Below, in pieces: positions 1-8,400 of a stretch of DNA of 8,488 bases. The notes beneath the pieces were generated by a model. It saw only the letters and a program-made list of their open reading frames with translations. It ran no database searches and was not told the origin of the DNA. Position numbers and translations under genes: made by a program. Every line of letters starts with the position of its first letter. Positions within the stretch are counted from its first letter, which is position 1. The stretch spans positions 1 through 8,488 of the forward strand of contig JANLFM010000042.1 of NCBI GenBank assembly GCA_024655865.1. The letters run 5' to 3'. The stretch comes from Caldisericota bacterium. Its GTDB lineage: Bacteria; Caldisericota; JANLFM01.

Positions 1-129
1 TGGTGGGGTTGGCTTACAATTGGATTAGCTGCCCTGGCATATATGGGGATCGTTTACTGGCTTTGGACAATGAAAACGAGGAAAACCAATATAAGGGGAA
101 ACCCGAGAACGCTCAGCCCTTCACCTTAG
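1..129 (+). CDS. C-terminal part of a small two-membrane-segment protein (5' end outside window)
   Basis: The reading frame is open from base 1 to the TAG at 127-129 and gives 42 residues. It begins with WWGW, continues as a hydrophobic membrane segment (about residues 4-23) and ends in a basic tail (MKTRKTN...). The pattern WWxW, then about 20 apolar residues containing LAALAY, then a basic tail, matches the second membrane segment of the 99-residue protein at 816-1115 (WWAW... VAIAY...). The two are therefore probably paralogs, and this tail belongs to a neighbouring copy of the same cassette. By comparison with the complete paralog, roughly 70 N-terminal residues lie upstream of the window. 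The likely topology is a membrane anchor with a cytoplasmic basic C-terminus. Function is unknown. The frame is confident; the paralogy is judged by eye on a short segment. Confidence 0.6.
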   Translation, partial: WWGWLTIGLAALAYMGIVYWLWTMKTRKTNIRGNPRTLSPSP

Positions 130-257
130 AAGACCATCTTTCGCTGCTGCTTTTTTCTTGAACTTATGATAGATCTCCTTCATCTGAGGATTGAATTTCC
201 CTTAGATAATAGAAGGAACTTAATTTCCTGGATCGAAGCGCGGAGCGACTTTGACTA

Positions 258-364
258 TCCGCTGGCAAGGCCAAGTCGAGACCCTCTCCTTGAAAGTCAA
301 AGATTAAATGGACAAGATTTCCCTTTCCTGCGTCTTTAAACATAAAGAGCAGTAGTGAAAAAGG
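258..364 (+). promoter_or_regulatory. Structured leader of the first LuxR-type gene (leader copy 1)
   Basis: Bases 258-349 align without gaps to 6681-6772, with 79 of 92 matching in a hand alignment. The last part can fold into a two-part hairpin. The outer arm is CCTTT 322-326 with AAAGG 360-364. The inner arm is CTGC 328-331 and TCTTT 333-337 with AAAGA 344-348 and GCAG 349-352. The 3' outer arm contains the only purine-rich SD-like stretch ahead of the ATG at 375, so the fold could hide it. CTGC/GCAG replaces different bases at the same place in the other copies, yet it still pairs. This could equally be a DNA inverted repeat bound by a LuxR-type dimer. I match it to no known riboswitch. 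The upstream stretch 130-257 holds no gene I can support. Confidence 0.6.
290..318 (+). promoter_or_regulatory. Candidate sigma-A-type promoter for the first LuxR-type gene
   Basis: TTGAAA at 290-295 resembles a -35 box. A 17-base spacer leads to CAAGAT at 313-318, a poor -10 box. The same TTGAAA and spacer occur ahead of the second complete LuxR-type gene (6713-6741), where the -10 reads CAGAAT. Support comes from conservation and spacing more than from box quality. Transcription would begin close to the foot of the leader hairpin. Confidence 0.35.
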
Positions 365-374
365 CGCTTTCTAA

Positions 375-656
375 ATGAAGGGCTTGACGGAGAGGGGAAA
401 GGAGATACTACAACTTTTGGCTCTGGGATGGAGCACTTCCTCAATTGCCAAGAAACTGTTGATCAGCGAGAAAACTGTGAGGAAACACCTGGAGCACATT
501 TACAGGAAACTTAAGATCCATTCTCACATTGAGGCGGTAGCTTGGGCCTGGAGGGAGGGGTTAGTAAAGGGGCAACCCCCCTCGTTTATGAATTGTTCCT
601 CAAAAACGGGAGGAGCTATAGGAAACGAGGATAAGAAACCTAACAGGCGATCATGA
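375..656 (+). CDS. Stand-alone LuxR/GerE-type HTH DNA-binding protein
   Basis: This 93-residue protein is almost entirely a LuxR C-terminal (GerE) DNA-binding domain. It opens LTERGKEILQLLALG. The recognition-helix region SEKTVRKHLEHIYRKL is the family hallmark at about residues 31-46, followed by the fourth helix at about 50-62. There is no receiver, autoinducer-binding or ATPase domain, so any signal input must come from elsewhere or from expression level. The last 28 residues or so (from KGQPPS) are hydrophilic and not part of the fold. The ATG at 375 is chosen because the domain begins at residue 4. Its SD is weak (AAGG at 361-364, 10 bases away) and lies inside the leader hairpin. It sits at the head of a cassette with the genes at 816 and 1119, and is likely a cytoplasmic regulator of itself and its neighbours (inference). 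The 3' part is duplicated at 1785-1957. Confidence 0.88.
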   Translation: MKGLTERGKEILQLLALGWSTSSIAKKLLISEKTVRKHLEHIYRKLKIHSHIEAVAWAWREGLVKGQPPSFMNCSSKTGGAIGNEDKKPNRRS

Positions 657-684
657 AATACGTCATTTGCCGTATTGACGGGGT
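513..684 (+). repeat. 172-bp direct repeat, copy A (3' part of LuxR-type gene and flank)
   Basis: Starting at AAGATCC and ending at GACGGGGT, this stretch recurs at 1785-1957 with about five substitutions and one inserted C. It covers the last third of the LuxR fold, the hydrophilic tail, the stop codon and 28 bases beyond. That non-coding end contains nested inverted repeats: ATACG 658-662 with CGTAT 671-675, and CGTCA 661-665 with TGACG 676-680. The non-coding end is as well conserved as the coding part, which suggests a recent copy event. Confidence 0.9.
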
Positions 685-702
685 AATAAATCGGCTTAAA
701 AT
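675..702 (+). promoter_or_regulatory. Candidate internal promoter ahead of the two-membrane-segment gene
   Basis: TTGACG at 675-680 is one base from the consensus -35. A 16-base spacer leads to TAAAAT at 697-702, one base from TATAAT. This would give the genes at 816 and 1119 a start independent of the LuxR gene. The -35 also forms an arm of the inverted repeat CGTCA/TGACG, a plausible operator position. The second repeat copy keeps TTGACG at 1948-1953, but the sequence after it is unrelated and has no good -10. Confidence 0.4.
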
Positions 703-815
703 TTCAAAGGTATCAATTTCAAGGAAAGGAGGAAAGATAATCTTAAAGGATGAGAGAAACGAACTATTGCCATCATTTAAATGTAAAAGTTAACACTGGT
801 TAAGGGGTGAGTAAA

Positions 816-1115
816 ATGAAGCATAAAGGGCTCCTTATAGGAATGGGGGTAGTGGTTTTTCTTGTTTTTCTTTATTTTTTAGTCTGGCAAACAGGGCTTT
901 TGCTCAGAATTTCTCTTCCTATTTATCCTCAGGGCGAAGTTTCTTTTTCCGCTCAGCCTCCTGAAATAGCTCCTCCCAAGACAGGGGTTACTCCCCAGAC
1001 TGCGATCATTAGGTATGGCCCTCCCTGGTGGGCTTGGGCTGCACTTGCCTTAGTAGCCATTGCCTATTCGGGGACTGTTGGTTATTTTTTGGCGAAAAGC
1101 AGGGAAGAGAGGTAA
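816..1115 (+). CDS. Small two-membrane-segment protein with a proline-rich loop
   Basis: The protein has 99 residues. Membrane segment 1 covers about residues 5-24. A proline-rich extracytoplasmic loop of about 45 residues (PIYPQG...QPPEIAPPKTG) follows. Membrane segment 2 covers about 71-92 (PWWAWAALALVAIAY...), with a short charged tail KSREER. The ATG at 816 is preferred over the in-frame GTG at 807 because AAGGGGTGA lies at the right distance from the ATG and overlaps that GTG. A small hairpin, TTAAC 790-794 with GTTAA 799-803, directly precedes the SD. The stop is three bases before the next start at 1119, so the two genes are probably translated together. The second segment resembles the partial protein at 1-129. 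Family and function are unknown; an anchor or partner for the secreted product is a guess from position. Confidence 0.72.
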   Translation: MKHKGLLIGMGVVVFLVFLYFLVWQTGLLLRISLPIYPQGEVSFSAQPPEIAPPKTGVTPQTAIIRYGPPWWAWAALALVAIAYSGTVGYFLAKSREER

Positions 1116-1118
1116 GAA

Positions 1119-1564
1119 ATGAAATCCTTTCGCAAGATAAAAGGTATAAAAACTTTTAGATATTTTGTCCTTATCCTGGTCCAGGTTTTTTGGCTACCTT
1201 GTCTGTAGGGAACGTTTCTGCGACACCAGACTTAATTGCTCCTGACCTTTATTACCAAACAATCAATATACCCATTACATCTGTTTGCTGGCCCTATTGT
1301 AATTACAAAGGTCCATATTATGACGTTTATTGGGCGCAGTTAACGCTATACTGGACTCCTTCATCCGCCGTGAAAAGCGCTTGGGTAGCTTTAAGATATT
1401 CAGCAACTCCGCCCGATTACTGGGGTACCATCCTGGTACCCGGCGCTAATACGATAACCTGGAGCAATATCGATCACACTAAGCCTGTTTACATTTTTGT
1501 TGCTCCGCCTGGTTTTGGATGCATCACCTATTATGGAACCCTTACCTTGGGCGTTGGTCCCTGA
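1119..1564 (+). CDS. Secreted beta-rich protein with a frameshift in its signal peptide
   Basis: The ATG at 1119 has a good SD (GAGAGG, 1107-1112) and starts a typical export signal: basic n-region MKSFRKIKGIKTFRY, then FVLILVQVF. That frame stops at 1206 after 29 residues. The rest of the signal (LATLSVGNVSA) and the mature domain (from TPDLIAP) are in the -1 frame, entered at the T6 run 1186-1191. Seven Ts would give one continuous 148-residue protein with cleavage after VSA, residue 35. A TTG at 1190 is in the mature frame, but it has no usable signal or SD. The mature part is about 113 residues, rich in aromatic residues and beta-type, with three cysteines (two in VCWPYCNY) and an ending YGTLTLGVGP. 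The middle and end resemble the C-terminal domain of the protein at 4055-4666. Possibilities are a real mutation, a switchable T tract, ribosomal slippage or a read error. No known family. Confidence 0.66.
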
Positions 1565-1636
1565 TTTTCAAGAGACAAAGGGTTAAATGTTTGCCAACCT
1601 GCCTTGAGATATAGGAGAGAAGATCGTCTGGTATCG

Positions 1637-1661
1637 CCCGGAATGCCTTTGGAATTCCGGG
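1637..1661 (+). terminator. GC-rich hairpin downstream of the frameshifted secreted gene
   Basis: CCCGGAAT (1637-1644) pairs perfectly with ATTCCGGG (1654-1661) across a 9-base loop, 73 bases after the stop at 1564. No T run follows, so it is not a classic intrinsic terminator. It may instead stop RNA decay or mark a transcript end. The rest of 1565-1710 holds no gene I can support. Confidence 0.35.
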
Positions 1662-1710
1662 ATTGTAAAGCCTGCAAATTCTGATTTGTCCCTTTAGAAG
1701 ATCTCTTAAA

Positions 1711-1775
1711 AAAGATTAGGCGTACAGAATTTCCCTTTCACTCGTCTTTAAAAACAAAAAGACAACGACGAAAGG
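1711..1775 (+). promoter_or_regulatory. Leader copy 2, ahead of the truncated LuxR copy
   Basis: Bases 1711-1758 are identical to 6722-6769 (48 of 48), so this leader is nearest to the one of the second complete LuxR gene. The two-part hairpin is present here too: outer CCTTTC 1734-1739 with GAAAGG 1770-1775, inner GTCTTT 1744-1749 with AAAGAC 1758-1763. Bases upstream of 1711 do not match the other leaders, and the TTGAAA -35 element is missing, so this copy may have lost its promoter. It ends next to a deletion that removed the LuxR start. Confidence 0.6.
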
Positions 1776-1784
1776 TGTTTTCTC

Positions 1785-1929
1785 AAGATCCATTCTCACA
1801 TTGAGGCCGTGGCTTGGGCCTGGAGGGAGGGGTTAGTAAAGGGGCCACCCCCCCTCGTTTATGAATTGTTCCTCAAAAACGGGAGGAGTTATAGGAAACG
1901 AGGATGAGAAACCTAACAGGCGATCATGA
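1785..1929 (+). pseudogene. Truncated, frameshifted remnant of a LuxR-type HTH gene
   Basis: The remnant corresponds to 513-656 of the intact gene. The start codon and about the first 46 codons, including the recognition helix, are missing. The leader runs directly into AAGATCC. Two early differences (GCG to GCC, GTA to GTG) are silent. One extra C in the run at about 1829-1835 then shifts the frame. No start or SD serves the remnant, so no DNA-binding protein can be made from it. It lies between the leader and the C39-like gene at 2026, where the other cassettes have an intact LuxR gene. Confidence 0.8.
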
Positions 1930-1957
1930 AATACGTCATTTGCCGTATTGACGGGGT
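1785..1957 (+). repeat. 172/173-bp direct repeat, copy B
   Basis: This is the second copy of 513-684, with about five substitutions and one inserted C. Similarity stops just after the -35-like TTGACG (1948-1953) in GACGGGGT, as in copy A. Beyond this point the cassettes carry unrelated downstream sequence. Confidence 0.9.
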
Positions 1958-2025
1958 TTCCAGTTCGTATTAGTTGTCTTAAAAAGTGTCGTTGAAAGGG
2001 GACGACGAAATCGGGGGTGTAAAAA

Positions 2026-2784
2026 ATGAAAAAATTAGGAACCTGCAAGATTGGATTGCTTTTGGCGGTGCTTGCACTCTTATCGGGGCTCTGTCTTTTA
2101 CCAGGTCAAGGTCTTTTAGCCAACTCTTCTGAATTCCAACAGCCAGAACCCAGACAGCCGATTTCCGATGAGCAAAAAAAATTAGATGAAACTGTAGAGA
2201 AAAAATTTGAGAAGTGGAAGGTTCAATTGCAGGAAGTAGGAATACTGTCAGGACAGTCTCGGATTTTAGCTGTTAATGCAGTTGACCAAATATACGATAA
2301 TTGGTGCGGTCCCGCTGCTACCAAGGAAATCCTCGATTACCGAGGAGATTACCATTCTCTATCTACATTGGCAAGCTGGTTGGGAACTGACAGCACCGGA
2401 ACAAGGATCGACAACGTTATTTCTCTTCTTAACGCCCACCAGTGGCGGCAGTACGTTCGCTATAATACTGATTATTACCCCACTTCCCCTTCTTGGCAGT
2501 ACCAATGGTTCCTGAAAGTGTATAACGACATTTGGAACTATGCTTCTCCAAATTTGGTGCAGGTCAGGTTGGATGACTTTGATCCTTACTATATTCCAAA
2601 TGGAGCTCACTACCTTGCCATTAAAGGGTTTTATTACGATACTTCTGGACAAAGCGACACAACGGTAACTTGGGTCGATTCGTATAACAAGGTTATAAAT
2701 GGAGTGAATCCTTTTGGCACCCATACGATGGAATACCGGGCTTTTGCCTACAACGTTTGGGTTTCAGCTGTAGGATCTCCCTGA
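2026..2784 (+). CDS. Secreted C39-like (papain-fold) cysteine peptidase
   Basis: The protein has 252 residues. A signal peptide covers about 1-32 (MKKLGTCKIGLLLAVLALL..., likely cut after LLA before NSS). A charged, probably helical linker rich in E, K and Q spans about 35-75. The catalytic domain spans about 80-250. Within it, QIYDNWCGPAA gives the nucleophile Cys94 and the usual upstream Gln88 for the oxyanion hole. HYLAIKGFYYD gives His195 and WVDSYN gives Asp218. Order and spacing fit the peptidase C39-like family, whose members cut peptides or bind them. No ABC transporter domain is present, so this is not a bacteriocin exporter. The start is set by GGGGGTG at 2013-2019, six bases before the ATG. 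A short hairpin, GTCGT 1988-1992 with ACGAC 2002-2006, lies just upstream. The lipoprotein gene starts eight bases after the stop. It may process neighbouring exported proteins (inference). Confidence 0.78.
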   Translation: MKKLGTCKIGLLLAVLALLSGLCLLPGQGLLANSSEFQQPEPRQPISDEQKKLDETVEKKFEKWKVQLQEVGILSGQSRILAVNAVDQIYDNWCGPAATKEILDYRGDYHSLSTLASWLGTDSTGTRIDNVISLLNAHQWRQYVRYNTDYYPTSPSWQYQWFLKVYNDIWNYASPNLVQVRLDDFDPYYIPNGAHYLAIKGFYYDTSGQSDTTVTWVDSYNKVINGVNPFGTHTMEYRAFAYNVWVSAVGSP

Positions 2785-2792
2785 AATAAAGC

Positions 2793-3938
2793 ATGAAAAC
2801 TCGACTTCTGACAGTTTCCTGGATTCTCCTTGTGGGGTTTTTGGTCAGTTGCAGCTCCTCCGCTGTGAGGTGGCCTGACTCTGCTGACTTCACTCTCCCG
2901 CTCCCTTCTATCGGCGAGGGGAGTGTCTGTGGAAAAATTGACACAGGGGAGATAGTCATTTCAGCATGTGATCTTCCCCGCGGTTCTCAATACGGGAACG
3001 ATCCCTACCCCAATTCTCGTTTGCTTCTTCTCCGTCCTGACGGAAGCTTGGAAGAATTCTACCGGTCTCCGGAAGAGCTGGTGGAAGCCCAGCATATAGT
3101 AGCAGAGGGCAACTGGATTGTATGGACAGTGGCTGATCGGATGTATGCGCTCGATCGAAAGTCGGGGAATAGAGAGGAAATTCCCGCCAAATTAGGGCTC
3201 ATGACCAATCTTTCCCTCTCCGATGGTAAAGCTGTCTGGCGTGAGGATGAAGGAGCTCACAGTGGACATCTGAAGCTATGGGATTTAGAAAGAAACCAAC
3301 TCCTGGAGCTAAAGAATATCCCGGAACCTACCTCGGACTCTCATACTCTGGCGGTATACCGCAAGGGTAAACTCTTCACCTGCACCTCCTCCGCTCTCGT
3401 ACTGCTCGATTTGAAAACAGGACGGACGCTGAGGACCTTCGACTGGAAAGAAGAAAGCTGGCTTGGAACTGCAGATTTTGGTCCCTGGCGGCTTTACCTG
3501 GCCGATAACCATGTCGCCTGGATCGAGTTGGGTAAGCTGGCTTATTTGAATAAGGGCGGGACAGACATGTGCTCCCGCCTGGTATTGGTGGACCTGCAAA
3601 CGGGAGAGAAGTTGATTCTGGGACAGGGAGGAAAAGAACAGCCCGAGGGCGGGAATGCTATAACCGCCGCTCTGACCGACCGGTTCATCGCCTGGCGTGG
3701 TTGGCCCAAGGATAGCTTTTCTCGCGATCCCATCGAATCAAAAATTTTCCTCTACTATTTCGCCGATAAAAGACAGGTCTCCTTCGCCGGAACGCCCGGG
3801 GGGGGTCAGGTGCCTGTCGCCCTCGATGAAGAGACAATTGCCTGGCTGACTTTGCCGCCAAAATTTTTTGAAGGCCCTAAACCGGGAGATTCTGTCTCAT
3901 TGCGCATCGTTAAGCCAATGGAGGTGGCAATTCCTTAA
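2793..3938 (+). CDS. Lipoprotein with a beta-propeller-like repeat domain
   Basis: The protein has 381 residues. The N-terminus MKTRLLTVSWILLVGFLVSC ends in a lipobox (LVSC), so Cys20 should be lipidated after export and anchor the protein to a membrane. The rest shows at least five imperfect repeats of the form 'dG..vaW......l..lDl.tG....l': for example around ALDRKSGNREEI, KLWDLERNQLLEL, LLDLKTGRTLRTF, LVDLQTGEKLIL and FLYYFADKRQVSF. This pattern is typical of TolB/WD40-like propellers, which usually bind partners rather than catalyse. Only eight bases separate it from the C39-like gene and the ATG has no clear SD, so translation probably depends on the upstream gene. Its DNA looks richer in GC than its neighbours, and it contains a G8 run at 3798-3805 that is in frame as given. 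Partner unknown; exact propeller family not assigned. Confidence 0.75.
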   Translation: MKTRLLTVSWILLVGFLVSCSSSAVRWPDSADFTLPLPSIGEGSVCGKIDTGEIVISACDLPRGSQYGNDPYPNSRLLLLRPDGSLEEFYRSPEELVEAQHIVAEGNWIVWTVADRMYALDRKSGNREEIPAKLGLMTNLSLSDGKAVWREDEGAHSGHLKLWDLERNQLLELKNIPEPTSDSHTLAVYRKGKLFTCTSSALVLLDLKTGRTLRTFDWKEESWLGTADFGPWRLYLADNHVAWIELGKLAYLNKGGTDMCSRLVLVDLQTGEKLILGQGGKEQPEGGNAITAALTDRFIAWRGWPKDSFSRDPIESKIFLYYFADKRQVSFAGTPGGGQVPVALDEETIAWLTLPPKFFEGPKPGDSVSLRIVKPMEVAIP

Positions 3939-4054
3939 TTAGGGAAGCTTGCGATCTAGATTTTTTTAAAAGTGGAACATTCTGAAGATTTTTACGTTTT
4001 CTATATTGAGGGTGTAATTAAGTAAAAGTACCCAGTTTTTGGAAAGTAAAGGAA

Positions 4055-4666
4055 ATGGGAAGGGCAGAAACGAAGAGGATAGTTAAAGGGCTGGTTGTGG
4101 TGGGATTGGTTTTTCTTATGATCATTGGATTTTCCCTAAGTGGGGTCGCCTCGGATGCTTACTCTGAAAGTAATTTCACTTTTTCAGAGACAGCATTTGA
4201 TACCGCCTTAACTCCTGAGGAGCAGGAAACCATACAAACTATGGAAAGAGATCAGGAACTTATTCGGGCTTTCGAACAAAAAATTACTACAGATCAAAAT
4301 AAGTTGTCCGGGACTGAACTTCTGCCGGAATCTTTTACTCCCATAAGAGATTGTGAACCGAAATGGTATTCCTACATCACGGTAAGCGGTTCCCTTCGTT
4401 ATGGGGAATCAATTTGGTATGGACGTTACTCAGGCATGGATTCCTTGATAATCCAGGTCAACTGGGTGCCGACGCCTCTTTCACTTACTGCAGTCATATT
4501 GGATGTAACTGAGGGGACAAGCACTCAATACAGATGGGTTGGAGGTTTGGGAAGCGTCATCTGTAATGTCAATCCTTCCCATGCCTATCTGGTTGGTTTC
4601 ATGAATTGCGCCGGGGCAGGCACCACCATCACCTTAAATGGAACTTTAACCCTTGTTCTCCACTGA
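4055..4666 (+). CDS. Secreted protein: helical linker plus beta-sandwich-like domain
   Basis: The protein has 203 residues. The N-terminus MGRAETKRIVKGLVVVGLVFLMIIGFSLSGVASDA is a signal peptide. A Glu/Gln-rich helical linker follows (TPEEQETIQTMERDQELIRA, extending to about residue 83). The domain from about residue 100 alternates in a beta pattern and contains Cys100, Cys170 and Cys185. Its core (VNWVPTPLSLTAVILDVTEG) and end (NGTLTLVLH) resemble LYWTPSSAVKSAWVALRYSA and YGTLTLGVGP in the protein at 1119-1564. The two are therefore probably distant paralogs. ATG 4055 is the only reasonable start in frame (a TAA lies at 4019-4021), but its SD (AAAGGAA) is very close. A better SD-like GAGGGTG at 4010-4016 lies 38 bases upstream and serves no start, so this region may have been rearranged. 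No known family. Confidence 0.72.
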   Translation: MGRAETKRIVKGLVVVGLVFLMIIGFSLSGVASDAYSESNFTFSETAFDTALTPEEQETIQTMERDQELIRAFEQKITTDQNKLSGTELLPESFTPIRDCEPKWYSYITVSGSLRYGESIWYGRYSGMDSLIIQVNWVPTPLSLTAVILDVTEGTSTQYRWVGGLGSVICNVNPSHAYLVGFMNCAGAGTTITLNGTLTLVLH

Positions 4667-4668
4667 TC

Positions 4669-4690
4669 TTCTGGTTTTGCCTTGAGCTGA
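4669..4690 (+). repeat. 22-bp intergenic repeat, copy 1
   Basis: The stretch from TTCTGG to GAGCTGA recurs at 6588-6609 with a single difference (G/C at the sixth base). Both copies lie after a secreted-protein gene and upstream of the next transcription unit. A weaker match (CTGCTTTTTTCTTGA...) starts near 147, ahead of leader copy 1. This suggests that cassette upstream regions share sequence beyond the leader. Role unknown. Confidence 0.6.
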
Positions 4691-4799
4691 TATTCCTTAA
4701 AAAAATTTTTTTGAAAAAGCTGGATATTTTGGAGAACAATTCCGTCTTTTATGTTGGAGGATGTTTGTAAGAAAAAACACTCATAACTGGAGTGAAGAA

Positions 4800-5696
4800 A
4801 TGAAGAGATTTAAAATAAGGAAGGTAGGATTGGTCCTTTTGGCGGGTGTACTCTTGATAGGGCTCTGTTTTTTACCCGGCTCGGATCTTTTGGCTAATAG
4901 TTCATTCCCTCGTTCCTCAGGCAATGATATTAACGAAGTCAACTTAATAGGCAGTGAGCCACAACCTCCCAGCCCCGAGTTATTGGAGAAAATCGCTTAT
5001 GAGGGAATGGACGAGCCAGCTGGAGAGGAAATGGCCCCCATTGGATTTCTGGAACCGTTCCCCAATCCCAAAATACACGCGAATATAAGCCTTTCTTCCT
5101 CCCTTTTCGGAACCCAGTATTGGTTTGCTGGCGTAGAATGCTGGTATCAGTTCCAAGGGGTTTACGCTTCTCTGTTAACAAGACGATCACCAATCTCGTT
5201 GAACCAAGACGACCGGATTTCAGGATGGATTGGCTTAACCTCATCTGATGGGAACACTTTTGTTCAAACTGGATGGGTTTATCTCCAACAAGGTTCTAGC
5301 GGCTATAATGGTATTTATGCTTTTTATCAAGTAGGGTCTAATCCAGCTAGGCTAGTTGCTCTGTTGTCAGCGGATACTTATTATCAGTTTAGAATAAGAT
5401 ATCAAGACCCAAATTACTGGCGATGTGAAGTATTTATGAATAATCAGTGGATATTATTAGGTTCAGCATACTATCCCGGTGTTACAAGTCTTTATCCGCA
5501 AGCTTATGGTGAAAGCCAATCAGCCGATGGTTACCATTTGGGAATGTTCCCGATAAGCACTAGTTGGGGAGCTCAAGTGTTAGCGGGCACTCAATGGCAA
5601 TACTGGACACACCAATCATTGCAAGAGAGTATACCGGGGGTGATGAATTTAGCAATTCTGAACTACTATTACAACATTCAATATTGGGGCTCTTAA
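4800..5696 (+). CDS. Secreted beta-rich protein with the shared 39-residue linker
   Basis: The protein has 298 residues from the ATG at 4800. That start is preferred over the ATG at 4761: 4800 has GGAGTGA five bases upstream and begins directly with the n-region MKRFKIRKVG, whereas GGAGG abuts the 4761 ATG with no spacer. The signal peptide (to about LLA, residue 32) is close to that of the C39-like protein: both read ...GLC(L/F)LPG..LLANSS. Residues 53-91 (EPQPPSPELLEKIAYEG...EPFPNPK) are identical to residues 34-72 of the next protein. The remaining 200 or so residues are rich in Tyr, Trp, Gln and Ser and look beta-structured. SGWIGL followed by FVQTGWVYL faintly recalls secreted glutamic-peptidase/neprosin-type beta-sandwiches or lectin-like folds, but I cannot assign a family or active site. 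Confidence 0.75.
   Translation: MKRFKIRKVGLVLLAGVLLIGLCFLPGSDLLANSSFPRSSGNDINEVNLIGSEPQPPSPELLEKIAYEGMDEPAGEEMAPIGFLEPFPNPKIHANISLSSSLFGTQYWFAGVECWYQFQGVYASLLTRRSPISLNQDDRISGWIGLTSSDGNTFVQTGWVYLQQGSSGYNGIYAFYQVGSNPARLVALLSADTYYQFRIRYQDPNYWRCEVFMNNQWILLGSAYYPGVTSLYPQAYGESQSADGYHLGMFPISTSWGAQVLAGTQWQYWTHQSLQESIPGVMNLAILNYYYNIQYWGS
4955..5071 (+). repeat. 117-bp coding repeat, copy 1
   Basis: This stretch matches 5843-5959 at 116 of 117 bases. The only difference is C at 5039 against T at 5927, which is silent (CCC/CCT, Pro). It encodes a Pro/Glu-rich segment just after the signal peptide, in the same frame in both genes. Flanking DNA on either side is unrelated, so the repeat is a bounded module. 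Confidence 0.95.
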
Positions 5697-5744
5697 TTTT
5701 TACTTGCATGGAGAGGAAAAACCCGATCAGGAAAGAATGATGAG

Positions 5745-6431
5745 ATGATGCGCCGGATTTTGATAGTTGTTTTTATGGGGTTCTTTGTTTTTTTCGTGGC
5801 ATCAATAGTGCAAGCATCGCTGAGTTCTTCTATAAATTCGCTTGAGCCACAACCTCCCAGCCCCGAGTTATTGGAGAAAATCGCTTATGAGGGAATGGAC
5901 GAGCCAGCTGGAGAGGAAATGGCCCCTATTGGATTTCTGGAACCGTTCCCCAATCCCAAGAACTACCTCACTGTGACTTCCAGCTCTCAACCTATGAAGG
6001 AAGTGGAGATCACAAATTTAGGAGGGATTACTTTACCTCATCCGCTACGCATGCTTTTTGTCTGGGAACTGGATGCCAGTTATGCCCCCGTGGGCCTTAA
6101 AATACCGGTGCGCTTTTACCTCCAAAACACAGGAAGCTCTACCATCTTTGGCCAGTTCGAGCTCAAACCGTTCGACCTGGAATTCGGATTAGAAGGTCAA
6201 CCAGGGAGAAACTGGAAAGAGGAGCAGGTTTCGGAGACCCCTTTAATGCAACCTTTGGCTATTCCTCCGGGTGCTATTATCACGGACAGAATTGAGATTC
6301 AATTTGATGCTCCCGGTTCATACTGGCTTATCCCCGTGGCTGTTTTTCAGGTAAAGGGCGAAGGGGACACTTTTGTCCCTTATTCCCTAAAGGGCGAGGC
6401 TCTGCAGTTGAAGGTCGTTGAAGTGAAATAG
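5745..6431 (+). CDS. Secreted Ig-like-fold protein with the shared 39-residue linker
   Basis: The protein has 228 residues. The signal peptide is MMRRILIVVFMGFFVFFVASIVQA (about residues 1-24). The linker at residues 34-72 is identical to that of the upstream protein. A C-terminal domain of about 150 residues follows. Its features, PVRFYLQNTGSSTI...FELKPFDLEF and then LAIPPGAIITDRIEIQFDAPGSYWLIPV, look like a seven-strand Ig-like sandwich. The arrangement is reminiscent of BsuPI-type inhibitor or secreted adaptor domains, but this is by eye only. Two adjacent ATGs (5745, 5748) are possible starts, with AGGAAAG at 5729-5735 as the SD. It follows the 4800 gene by 48 bases with no obvious terminator, so the two are probably one transcript. 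It may be a binding or inhibitor subunit; no catalytic motif is visible. Confidence 0.74.
   Translation: MMRRILIVVFMGFFVFFVASIVQASLSSSINSLEPQPPSPELLEKIAYEGMDEPAGEEMAPIGFLEPFPNPKNYLTVTSSSQPMKEVEITNLGGITLPHPLRMLFVWELDASYAPVGLKIPVRFYLQNTGSSTIFGQFELKPFDLEFGLEGQPGRNWKEEQVSETPLMQPLAIPPGAIITDRIEIQFDAPGSYWLIPVAVFQVKGEGDTFVPYSLKGEALQLKVVEVK
5843..5959 (+). repeat. 117-bp coding repeat, copy 2
   Basis: This is the second copy of 4955-5071, shifted by 888 bases, with one silent change. Such near-identity between genes whose other parts are unrelated points to recent duplication or gene conversion of the linker segment alone. Confidence 0.95.
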
Positions 6432-6446
6432 GTTCATTTTAGAATT

Positions 6447-6470
6447 AGAAAGGGTCGCATTCCTTTTTCT
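6447..6470 (+). terminator. Weak terminator candidate after the Ig-like gene
   Basis: AAAGG (6449-6453) can pair with CCTTT (6462-6466) across an 8-base loop, and the 3' arm runs into TTCTT. The stem is short and AT-rich, so termination would be inefficient. Its position 15 bases after a stop codon and before a new leader is the main support. Confidence 0.3.
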
Positions 6471-6587
6471 TGGCCTTCCTATTTTTGGTCTTCTCCTGAT
6501 TTTCCTTTTCCTCTTTGGCCCTCCAGGGGCCCTCAGGTTTTCTCCTCCAGTAGTTTTTACTTGTCTTCACCATCGAGCTTAATTTCC

Positions 6588-6609
6588 TTCTGCTTTTGCC
6601 TTGAGCTGA
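6588..6609 (+). repeat. 22-bp intergenic repeat, copy 2
   Basis: This matches 4669-4690 at 21 of 22 bases. It lies 72 bases upstream of leader copy 3. Confidence 0.6.
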
Positions 6610-6680
6610 GATTTCTGGAAAAACTTACGATCTTCTGATTGAAAGAGCGCATCCTGGGCGAAGCAACCAATAGGTAACTG

Positions 6681-6788
6681 TCCGCTGGCAAGGCCACGTT
6701 GAGACCCTCTCCTTGAAAGTCAAAGATTAGGCGTACAGAATTTCCCTTTCACTCGTCTTTAAAAACAAAGAGATAAGCGGTGAAAGGG
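6681..6788 (+). promoter_or_regulatory. Structured leader of the second LuxR-type gene (leader copy 3)
   Basis: Bases 6681-6772 match leader copy 1 at 79 of 92 positions, and 6722-6769 match copy 2 exactly. This copy has the strongest hairpin. Its outer stem is CCCTTTCAC 6744-6752 with GTGAAAGGG 6780-6788, a perfect 9 bp. Its inner stem is TCTTT 6756-6760 with AAAGA 6767-6771. The 3' outer arm contains the SD (AAAGGG, followed by TG) of the ATG at 6796, so folding should block ribosome entry. The fold might be opened by a ligand, temperature, a protein or translation. Alternatively the same bases are a dimer operator for the LuxR protein. Confidence 0.65.
6713..6741 (+). promoter_or_regulatory. 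Candidate promoter for the second LuxR-type operon
   Basis: TTGAAA at 6713-6718, a 17-base spacer, and CAGAAT at 6736-6741 (four of six to TATAAT) form the candidate. Box positions agree with those before the first LuxR-type gene (290-318). The predicted start would fall at the foot of the leader hairpin. Confidence 0.38.
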
Positions 6789-6795
6789 TGCTAAA

Positions 6796-7026
6796 ATGGA
6801 AAGTTTAACAAAGAGAGAAAAAACGGTTCTGGATCAGCTGCTTCAAGGAAAGAGCAATAAGGAAATAGCAATGGTTCTCAGCGTCAGCGAGAAAACCGTG
6901 GAAAAACACCTCACGAGCATTTACCATAAGCTGGGGGTATCTGGAAGAGCAGAAGCAATTGTTCTCTCCTATAGCGAGATGCCCAAGAAAGCGGAGGCCA
7001 AAGGTAAAAGGTATGGATTTCCCTAA
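6796..7026 (+). CDS. Stand-alone LuxR/GerE-type HTH DNA-binding protein (second copy)
   Basis: The protein has 76 residues and consists of a GerE-type domain from LTKREKTVLDQLLQGKSNKE onward. The hallmark SVSEKTVEKHLTSIYHKLGV covers about residues 29-48, and a short basic tail (KKAEAKGKRYGFP) ends it. As in the protein at 375-656, no sensory domain is present. The two share the domain layout, SEKTV(R/E)KHL and IY(R/H)KL, but differ widely elsewhere, so they are older paralogs than their leaders suggest. The SD AAGGGTG lies five bases before the ATG and inside the leader hairpin. The secreted-protein gene begins 50 bases downstream and the SurA-like gene follows, so this regulator heads a three-gene operon. 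It likely binds DNA as a dimer in the cytoplasm; the target is not shown, and its own leader is the obvious candidate (inference). Confidence 0.88.
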   Translation: MESLTKREKTVLDQLLQGKSNKEIAMVLSVSEKTVEKHLTSIYHKLGVSGRAEAIVLSYSEMPKKAEAKGKRYGFP

Positions 7027-7076
7027 TTGACAAAGATTACCCTTGTTTTAAGCTCTTTTTGGAGGTGAAGAAGAAA

Positions 7077-7613
7077 TTGAGAGGAAAAAAGAGAACGATT
7101 GCCACTTTTGTCTCTCTTGCGGTAGCTATGGTTATTTTCCTTAGTTTACCAGGATCCACATTAGCATTGGACAAAAACGCCAATGATTATTCAGTTTTTG
7201 TGTTCCAGGTACCTGGCTATCCTTGGTTGACATCTATAGGAATCAGCAGGTATCTTAGCATTTACTATTACTTCGTCGGGTCTGGTTATTATTCCACCTG
7301 TATAGTTGCTTCGCACATTCATTATGGATTCCTCAAGGGTTACTGGACACTTCCTCTGGTTCAAGAAGGAATTTTGTGGGTGGATGCTACAGGAAAGAAC
7401 GTTTACTATGCTAATAACAACTATGTGACTACAGTTAACATCCCTAACAATGCTGATGGTTGGTATGATCCAAATGACAAAATTTGGGGAGGGTCTATCG
7501 CTACTAATGTAAACCTCTGGCCATCATACAATTTGGCGTGTGATGGGGTAATGGAGGTCTTCTCCAATGGTCTTCCATACTATTCCTGGCGAACTCTCCG
7601 GATCACCTTTTAG
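7077..7613 (+). CDS. Secreted aromatic-rich protein of unknown family
   Basis: The protein has 178 residues from a TTG start. GGAGGTG at 7061-7067 is a strong SD nine bases before TTG 7077. In-frame GTG 7065 and TTG 7059 overlap that SD and are unlikely starts. The N-terminus MRGKKRTIATFVSLAVAMVIFLSLPGSTLA is a signal peptide, likely cut after residue 30. The mature part (about 148 residues) is rich in Tyr, Trp, Asn and Gly, looks beta-structured, and has two cysteines (STCIVAS and LACDG) that could form a disulfide. I recognise no family and no catalytic motif. It lies between the LuxR-type gene and the SurA-like gene, with only ten bases to the latter. It is therefore a natural client for that chaperone and a target of that regulator (inference from gene order). 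Confidence 0.72.
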   Translation: MRGKKRTIATFVSLAVAMVIFLSLPGSTLALDKNANDYSVFVFQVPGYPWLTSIGISRYLSIYYYFVGSGYYSTCIVASHIHYGFLKGYWTLPLVQEGILWVDATGKNVYYANNNYVTTVNIPNNADGWYDPNDKIWGGSIATNVNLWPSYNLACDGVMEVFSNGLPYYSWRTLRITF

Positions 7614-7623
7614 GAGGTGAAAA

Positions 7624-8400
7624 ATGAAAATTAAGAAAAGTTACCTAACTTTGATTGCCGTAGTTGTGGCTGCCGGCCTTATCGGTTGGGGAGTTTTTCA
7701 AGCATTGAGTGCTCAATCAAGTGCCCAGCTTTGGGGTGAGTCCTGGAAAAATGCCACTGACCGAGTGGTTCTCAAGGTTAATGACCAGGAGGCGACCGAG
7801 AAGGACTTGGTCTCATTTTACCTCACCTTACGCTACAATCCTGCTCTTTCTTCGAAGGGCGACCAAGAGCTCAAGGTTGAGGCCTTGGCGCGGTTAATTG
7901 AGGATAAGGTCCTCCTCTCAGAGGCCCTGAAGAGGGGGTACGGGGTAAGCGAGGAGGAAGCCAGAGCCTATTCAGAGGAAATTCGAAAAAGCATGAACTT
8001 TCCTGATGTAATTGGGAAAGAATGGTTTGAAGACTTAATAAAGGGCATGGGAGTAAGCCAGCAGGAATATTGGGAGATGGCGCCTAAGGGCTACCAGATG
8101 ATACTATCTGTGAGTAACCTGATGGCTAGCCTGAGAAAAAACATTCCTCCTCCCACCGCAGAGGAGATACAGGCCTGGAAGAAGGAGCATCCCAATTACC
8201 AGAATGCACCTCTGGAGGTTTTGCAGCAAGAGGTAGCTCAGGATAATTTTGAACGCTTCCGCCAGGACTTCGTCAAAGGGCTATTAAAAGAAGCCGAGAT
8301 CAATGCCCTCGATCCTCAGCTTCAAGAGCTTCTCCCCCAGGCTCTTAAGCTCATCGAGCAAGGTCTGGGGCCAATCCCCATACCTACGCCTTCCCCTTAA
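7624..8400 (+). CDS. Membrane-anchored SurA-N-like chaperone without parvulin domain
   Basis: The protein has 258 residues. A single N-terminal hydrophobic segment (about 6-28; anchor or signal peptide with possible cleavage after SSA) precedes the body. VVLKVNDQEATEKDLVSFY at about 48-66 is the typical start of the SurA/PrsA N-terminal chaperone domain (V.VNg..it..d). Helices carrying LARLIEDKVLLSEALKRGYGVSEEEA follow, then a C-terminal helix returning at about 195-225. The PpiC/parvulin isomerase domain usual in SurA and PrsA is absent, and the protein ends in IPIPTPSP. It should act outside the cytoplasmic membrane as a holding chaperone for exported proteins. GGAGGTG at 7614-7620 directly follows the stop of the previous gene and sits well for the ATG, so the two genes are tightly co-expressed. 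Confidence in the fold is good; the client is inferred. Confidence 0.78.
   Translation: MKIKKSYLTLIAVVVAAGLIGWGVFQALSAQSSAQLWGESWKNATDRVVLKVNDQEATEKDLVSFYLTLRYNPALSSKGDQELKVEALARLIEDKVLLSEALKRGYGVSEEEARAYSEEIRKSMNFPDVIGKEWFEDLIKGMGVSQQEYWEMAPKGYQMILSVSNLMASLRKNIPPPTAEEIQAWKKEHPNYQNAPLEVLQQEVAQDNFERFRQDFVKGLLKEAEINALDPQLQELLPQALKLIEQGLGPIPIPTPSP

What the first reader, a model, noticed from the sequence alone, without database searches (positions are those of the whole stretch)
258..8400. Repeated 'leader - DNA-binding-only LuxR protein - exported protein' cassettes
Three leaders of one family (258, 1711, 6681) each precede a LuxR-type gene: two intact, one broken. Each is followed by one or more exported proteins, and a further cassette seems to end at base 129. 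LuxR-type regulators without any input domain, repeated beside unrelated secreted or membrane proteins, do not match a system I know. This could be a modular family of envelope or secreted-effector loci, each with its own regulator.
Basis: partly seen in the sequence, partly recalled or inferred. Interest (0 to 1): 0.8.

Follow-up and report, generated by a model that had tools for sequence, protein, structure and literature searches.

The report
Exported-protein regulon with tiny LuxR regulators
In one uncultured bacterium, a family of at least a dozen genes for exported proteins shares one promoter type, which also drives two tiny LuxR-like DNA-binding proteins whose probable target site has stayed intact beside exported-protein genes even where the regulator gene next to it has decayed.

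Summary
Three related leaders (254-349, 1711-1775, 6677-6772) precede two intact and one broken DNA-binding-only LuxR genes, each followed by exported-protein genes. The genome holds one more leader (contig C41) and, counting doubtful cases, four more remnants of such genes.

The interpretation needs changing. The leader is not an RNA element of its own. Its first half is the relic 3' end of a lipoprotein gene, still intact on C41. Its second half carries an ECF-sigma-type promoter core, GNACA-N3-T-N11/12-CGTCTT. A genome search for that core gives 16 hits against 1 for the control pattern. Fourteen of them lie before the four mini-LuxR genes or in exported-gene leaders. C41 encodes an ECF sigma factor.

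Behind the A-type mini-LuxR genes lies a NarL-like 7-2-7 dyad abutting TTGAC. It occurs exactly four times in the genome (about 0.0002 expected), each time before an exported gene. One regulator copy is truncated, one is a decayed relic and one is barely recognisable, yet the 21-bp site stays intact.

I read this as a lineage-specific two-tier regulon (ECF promoter, then GerE-like mini-LuxR, then exported proteins), not self-contained cassettes each with its own regulator. All functions are inferred from sequence.

The parts
1..129 (+). C-terminus of a small membrane protein (WWGWLTIGLAALAYMGIVYWLW...), paralogue of 822-1115
   Evidence: direct translation; same PWWAWAA..AY.G.V motif as 822-1115 and C25:3784-4110 (52% id between the latter two)
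233..307 (+). relic 3' end of a lipoprotein gene (..LTIRWQGQVETLSLKVKD*), first half of leader 1
   Evidence: intact ORF C41:6299-6775 ends ..LTIRWQGQVETLSLRVED*
310..336 (+). ECF-type promoter core GGACA-N3-T-N12-CGTCTT of leader 1
   Evidence: (16 genome hits, control 1)
375..656 (+). mini-LuxR A, 93 aa, intact, DNA-binding domain only
   Evidence: PF00196 63.5 bits; best solved match is the NarL DNA-binding domain, 8u3b/1je8
659..674 (+). candidate operator TACGTCA-TT-TGCCGTA (7-2-7 dyad), followed by TTGACG 675-680 (-35-like)
   Evidence: 4 exact genome hits, 0 control, 0 in 25 relatives for the 21-bp pattern; expected 0.0002
822..1115 (+). two-TM membrane protein, 97 aa (ORF from GTG 807)
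   Evidence: hydropathy
1120..1564 (+). secreted protein whose signal peptide is separated from the mature part by a frameshift near 1183
   Evidence: read from sequence
1711..1775 (+). leader 2 with ECF-type promoter core 1722-1748
1782..1926 (+). broken mini-LuxR A (N-terminal ~45 codons missing)
   Evidence: 96% DNA identity to the corresponding part of 510-684; stops in frame
1932..1947 (+). candidate operator TACGTCATTTGCCGTA, followed by TTGACG 1948-1953
2026..2784 (+). exported C39-like cysteine peptidase, 252 aa
   Evidence: PF13529 34.5 bits, cut-off 24
2793..3938 (+). lipoprotein-like exported protein, 381 aa (weak BamB/PQQ propeller similarity)
3957..4054 (+). exported-gene leader (E-leader) with promoter core GAACA..CGTTTT at 3975-4000
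   Evidence: covariance model R1, 67.3 bits (this sequence was in the training set)
4055..4666 (+). exported protein of the KGLVVV signal-peptide family
4704..4800 (+). E-leader with promoter core GGATA..CGTCTT at 4722-4748
   Evidence: R1, 76.1 bits (this sequence was in the training set)
4800..5696 (+). exported protein, 298 aa, paralogues on C40, C16, C25
5745..6431 (+). exported protein sharing a 117-nt segment (5843-5959) with its neighbour (4955-5071)
6674..6730 (+). relic lipoprotein 3' end (VTVRWQGHVETLSLKVKD*), first half of leader 3
6733..6759 (+). ECF-type promoter core GTACA-N3-T-N12-CGTCTT of leader 3
6796..7026 (+). mini-LuxR B, 76 aa, intact
   Evidence: PF00196 77 bits; best solved match GerE 1fse; 44% identical to A
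7011..7026 (+). weak candidate operator GTATGGA-TT-TCCCTAA followed by TTGACA 7027-7032
   Evidence: same geometry as the A site; only in C36 and the two C40 copies, so not independent
7077..7613 (+). exported protein, 178 aa; its paralogue on C16 sits directly behind an E-leader
   Evidence: 43% identity to the C16 protein
7624..8400 (+). SurA-like N-domain exported protein, 258 aa
   Evidence: PF13624 30.9 bits; paralogues on C40 and C16

Best explanation
The window is part of a two-tier regulon for exported proteins. Tier 1 is an ECF-type promoter (GNAC-N16/17-CGTCTT). It stands directly before many paralogous exported-protein genes and before the mini-LuxR genes, and is probably read by the ECF sigma factor encoded on contig C41 with its possible membrane-anchored partner. 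Tier 2 is mini-LuxR A, a GerE-sized protein with no input domain, so its activity is probably set by how much is made. It binds as a dimer to a 7-2-7 dyad abutting a -35 box and switches on (or off) the exported genes behind it. The repeats arose by copying a ~400-bp piece (relic lipoprotein end, promoter, mini-LuxR, operator) in front of different exported genes. In some copies the regulator decayed while the operator was kept, so the surviving copies act in trans. Shown: the sequence architecture, the genome-wide counts, the family assignments and the operator retention. Inferred: sigma recognition, DNA binding, activation and physiological role.
For: Promoter core: 16 genome hits against 1 for the control pattern. 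Fourteen lie before the 4 mini-LuxR genes or in 10 exported-gene leaders, one of which runs off a contig end before its gene. Six of the exported-gene hits were not used to design the pattern. A covariance model of the exported-gene leader gives 14 hits here (11 of them training sequences), 1 in a same-family genome (also a training sequence) and none in 24 others. An AC/AAC -35 motif about 17 nt before CGTC matches ECF promoters (PMC4153023; PMC6767563). An ECF sigma lies on C41 with a possible membrane-anchored anti-sigma, a response regulator, a histidine kinase and a cut mini-LuxR copy. Operator: exactly 4 hits to the 21-bp pattern, 0.0002 expected, none in 25 relatives, each about 60-160 bp before an exported gene. 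Mini-LuxR A's best solved relative is the NarL DNA-binding domain, and NarL sites are 7-2-7 (PMC9314961). The site centre lies about 8 bp from the -35 box, about -43, the class II position (lux box -42.5, PMC3376562). On C40 the operator follows a decayed mini-LuxR relic (0 of 300 shuffles as good) and on C37 a possible one (2 of 300).
Against: No expression or binding data exist. The 14 promoter hits and 4 operators come from few independent lineages, because the genes are paralogues; I count about 3 independent operators. Sigma-A -10 boxes behind the operator are poor at 1932. The E-leader has no covariation support. The mini-LuxR genes are absent from the one other genome of the genus and from the other phylum genomes searched, so there is no cross-species conservation. 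The genome also has an NarL-type response regulator (C20) that could own the 7-2-7 site. The link between the C41 ECF sigma and this promoter rests on proximity.
Confidence: 0.6

Rival explanations
1. The repeats are debris of segmental duplication around a C41-like locus. Leaders and mini-LuxR copies are drifting and no longer regulate anything in particular.
For: One of the window's three copies and both C40 copies are truncated. Leader halves are relics of an upstream gene. Several exported genes look frameshifted (C37, C25, window 1120-1564).
Against: The 21-bp operator pattern is met in full at four loci, including two where the regulator is unrecognisable or nearly so. The A and B proteins are 44% identical yet both keep complete HTH domains. 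The promoter core is kept at 14 places.
Confidence: 0.2
2. The shared 27-bp element is the binding site of the OmpR-type response regulator on C41 (or of another regulator), not an ECF promoter.
For: An OmpR-family regulator and kinase lie directly upstream of the C41 copy of the cassette.
Against: The element is two blocks with a 16 or 17 bp spacer ending in CGTCTT, the form of ECF promoters, and shows no direct repeat as expected for OmpR-type sites. It lies at promoter distance from start codons.
Confidence: 0.15
3. The leader is an RNA element (riboswitch or thermometer): the CCCTTTCAC..GTGAAAGGG stem hides the ribosome binding site of the mini-LuxR gene.
For: In leader 3 the 58-nt stem region folds with z -4.6.
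Against: The other two window leaders fold no better than shuffles. No Rfam family matches. The pair count gave no support, though the structure tested was loosely placed. If the promoter is placed correctly, the 5' arm lies upstream of the transcription start.
Confidence: 0.05

Closest known systems
GerE of Bacillus subtilis (74 aa, LuxR HTH only)
   Same: DNA-binding-only LuxR protein of the same size as mini-LuxR B (best solved match, 1fse, E 8e-12). GerE is part of a sigma-factor cascade (PMC517825) that controls spore outer-layer proteins.
   Different: GerE is a single chromosomal gene tied to sporulation and sigma K. Here there are several copies beside exported-protein genes, a different operator and an ECF-type promoter; no sporulation genes were looked for.
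PedR of cyanobacteria (small LuxR-type regulator, NCBIfam NF052366)
   Same: Stand-alone LuxR HTH of about 74 aa; regulator without a sensory domain (PMC4361706).
   Different: PedR is redox-controlled through thioredoxin. Mini-LuxR B has no cysteine and A has one, in its tail. Scores are far below the PedR cut-off.
NarL DNA-binding domain and its 7-2-7 sites
   Same: Best solved relative of mini-LuxR A; inverted heptamers with a 2-bp gap (PMC9314961), here beginning TAC.
   Different: NarL has a receiver domain and responds to nitrate through a kinase. The heptamer here is TACGNCA, and no receiver is present.
ECF sigma regulons of envelope genes (sigma W/M of Bacillus, sigma E of Streptomyces)
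   Same: -35 AC/AAC and -10 CGTC promoters before many envelope and exported genes, with the sigma gene next to a possible membrane-anchored partner.
   Different: Here the targets are lineage-specific paralogous exported proteins, and the promoter also drives mini-LuxR genes that carry their own operator. The assignment to the C41 sigma is untested.

Membership tests
LuxR/GerE HTH family (PF00196) | HTH domain above the curated cut-off | tested here: met
   63.5 and 77 bits against cut-off 23.5
GerE-like (stand-alone LuxR HTH) | no receiver or ligand-binding domain; whole protein about 75-95 aa | tested here: met
   93 and 76 aa, only HTH families match
GerE orthologue | function in a sporulation cascade | not tested
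   no search for sporulation genes was made
NarL-type 7-2-7 operator | two inverted 7-bp elements separated by 2 bp | tested here: met
   TACGTCA-TT-TGCCGTA, 6 of 7 dyad positions match, 4 genome copies
NarL-type 7-2-7 operator | bound by a LuxR-family dimer | not testable with these tools
   needs a binding assay
ECF sigma promoter | AAC-like -35 motif and CGT -10 motif 16-17 bp apart, before genes of a common class | tested here: met
   GNAC-N16/17-CGTCTT at 14 of 16 hits before mini-LuxR genes or in exported-gene leaders
ECF sigma promoter | transcription depends on an ECF sigma | not testable with these tools
   an ECF sigma is encoded on C41 (PF04542 55.4 bits); dependence not shown
Structured RNA leader (riboswitch or thermometer) | stem conserved by compensatory changes | tested here: inconclusive
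   no supported covariation in four leaders with a loosely placed structure, no Rfam match

The most novel reading that the evidence does not exclude
A regulator-plus-operator cassette spreads by duplication in front of unrelated exported genes. The regulator copies then decay while the operators stay, so a set of self-contained cassettes turns into one trans-acting regulon nested inside an ECF sigma regulon. That would be a regulon caught in the act of being built.
Probability: 0.35. Interest if true: 0.65.

Novelty: new variant of a known kind. Interest (0 to 1): 0.5.

Why it matters
How new regulons arise is usually inferred from long-diverged genomes. Here copies at different stages sit in one genome: intact regulator with operator, truncated regulator with operator, and decayed or possible relic with operator. 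If binding is confirmed, it would show a route by which a promoter-regulator-operator unit is copied onto secreted-protein genes and then reduced to its operator. It would also give a first regulon, with a defined promoter and operator, for an uncultured group one of whose relatives is deposited as Coprothermobacterota.

Tried and rejected
1) RNA leader: folds, Rfam and pair counts gave no support; the structure was loosely placed. 2) Neprosin-like peptidase for the 298-aa exported family: my impression from motifs; Pfam and PDB profile searches found nothing credible, and the AlphaFold model was too poor (pLDDT 40), so no fold search was run. 3) B-type operator: same geometry, but present only in copies of the same gene; the two further near-matches are not before exported genes. 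4) Mobile element: no match to the cassette DNA in phages or plasmids, and the leader is absent from viral contigs; no transposase was noticed among the ORFs listed beside the cassettes. 5) Mini-LuxR in relatives: none in the phylum genomes (54 genomes with this one); the hits there are longer proteins, mostly response-regulator-sized. 6) A genome-contig scan with the 298-aa protein alone found nothing; with an alignment it found one relative, the same-family genome deposited as Coprothermobacterota.
Full report
SETTING. The window is the whole of contig C36 of a 1.82-Mb, 63-contig genome. A genome of the same family was identified as a record deposited as 'Coprothermobacterota bacterium', Lake Pavin. 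The genome is incomplete, and most contigs with these loci are short: C36, C37, C40, C41 and C46 are 5-8.5 kb; C16 and C25 are 13-23 kb.

OBSERVATION. The three leaders are real repeats and there is one more, at the very end of C41. They precede mini-LuxR A (375-656), a broken A copy (1782-1926), mini-LuxR B (6796-7026) and a cut A-type start on C41. Both intact proteins are nothing but a LuxR HTH. A and B are only 44% identical, although their leaders are 85% identical in DNA. What lies downstream is different each time and, apart from the frameshifted 1120-1564, starts with a signal-like segment: a two-TM protein, a C39-like peptidase, a lipoprotein, families without known relatives, and a SurA-like protein.

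WHAT THE LEADER IS. On C41 the first half of the leader is the end of an intact lipoprotein gene (...LTIRWQGQVETLSLRVED*). In the window the same codons are left as a relic. The second half contains GNACA-NNNT-N11/12-CGTCTT. The same block stands before exported-protein genes that have no mini-LuxR. Searching the genome with it gave 16 hits against 1 for the reversed pattern. Four are the mini-LuxR leaders; ten are in leaders of the exported-gene type on C16 (3), C25, C37, C41, C46 (3) and C50, one of the C46 leaders running off the contig before its gene; two on C62 look like chance. Six of those exported-gene hits had not been used to design the pattern. The two exported genes in the middle of the window have the block with one or two departures (3975, 4722). 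A covariance model of the exported-gene leader (12 training sequences) finds 14 copies in this genome, including ones not in the training set at C37:1442, C40:2180 and C46:1-93, one in the same-family genome (a training sequence) and none in 24 other relatives. The form of the block, AC/AAC then 16-17 bp then CGTC, is that of ECF sigma promoters (PMC4153023; PMC6767563). C41 encodes an ECF sigma factor and a membrane protein overlapping it, which may be its anti-sigma, in the same cluster. That this sigma reads these promoters is inference.

THE OPERATOR. Between each A-type mini-LuxR 3' end and the next exported gene lies TACGTCATTTGCCGTATTGACG. It is a 7-2-7 dyad directly followed by a -35-like TTGAC. 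The 21-bp pattern occurs four times in the genome (C36 twice, C37, C40), never in 25 relatives, with 0.0002 expected by chance. On C40 it is reached through a decayed mini-LuxR C-terminus (0 of 300 shuffles as similar) and on C37 through a possible one (2 of 300). So the site was kept where the regulator was lost. The two C36 sites are copies of each other, so I count about three independent cases. Mini-LuxR A is closest, among solved proteins, to the NarL DNA-binding domain, whose sites are 7-2-7 (PMC9314961). The spacing to the -35 box puts the dyad centre near -43, the position of the lux box (-42.5, PMC3376562), that is, of a class II activator. Activation rather than repression is a guess from that geometry.

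COPYING. The gene pair behind regulator B (7077 and 7624) has a paralogous pair on C16 (43% and 41% identity) that sits directly behind an exported-gene leader with no regulator. The cassette has therefore probably replaced or been added to an existing promoter. The exported families are much older than the cassette copies: the proteins are mostly 40-50% identical, the cassettes 85-96% in DNA.

VERDICT. It is better described as a two-tier regulon of exported proteins with GerE-like mini-regulators than as modular loci each with its own regulator. The parts are known kinds; the combination and the stages of decay are not something I found described, but my paper searches were few and cannot exclude it.

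Noticed in passing
4955-5071 and 5843-5959: Two adjacent, otherwise different exported genes share a 117-nt segment at 99% DNA identity (about 40 aa near the N-terminus). C40 has its own matching pair with a different shared segment, which suggests concerted evolution of this part.
   Followed up: partly
about 1183 (1120-1564): A frame break at a run of six T lies between the signal peptide and the mature part of a secreted protein. Exported genes on C37 and C25 also look frameshifted; errors, decay or phase variation cannot be told apart here.
   Followed up: no
L021 (C40): about 4003-6947: An apparently exact ~1.47-kb tandem repeat runs to the contig end; a real duplication or an assembly artefact.
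   Followed up: no
3957-4054, 4704-4800 and 12 further loci: The exported-gene leader ends in a GGGTGT..ACACCC hairpin with AGGA/AAGGAGA in its loop beside the ribosome binding site; a CsrA-like site is possible. Two such sequences fold with z -3.4 and -4.3, but covariation is lacking.
   Followed up: partly
L022 (C41):257 and 4095, L115 (C46), L116 (C16), L026 (C25), window 4055: Six exported proteins share a closely related signal peptide (MKREVIKGLVVVGLVFLVTMGLFPG) with different mature parts.
   Followed up: partly
L058 (C11):1501-1520: An 18-nt exact copy of AGGGATTTCCCTAATTGA, the B-type candidate site, lies in a gap between two reverse-strand genes with no exported gene behind it.
   Followed up: no
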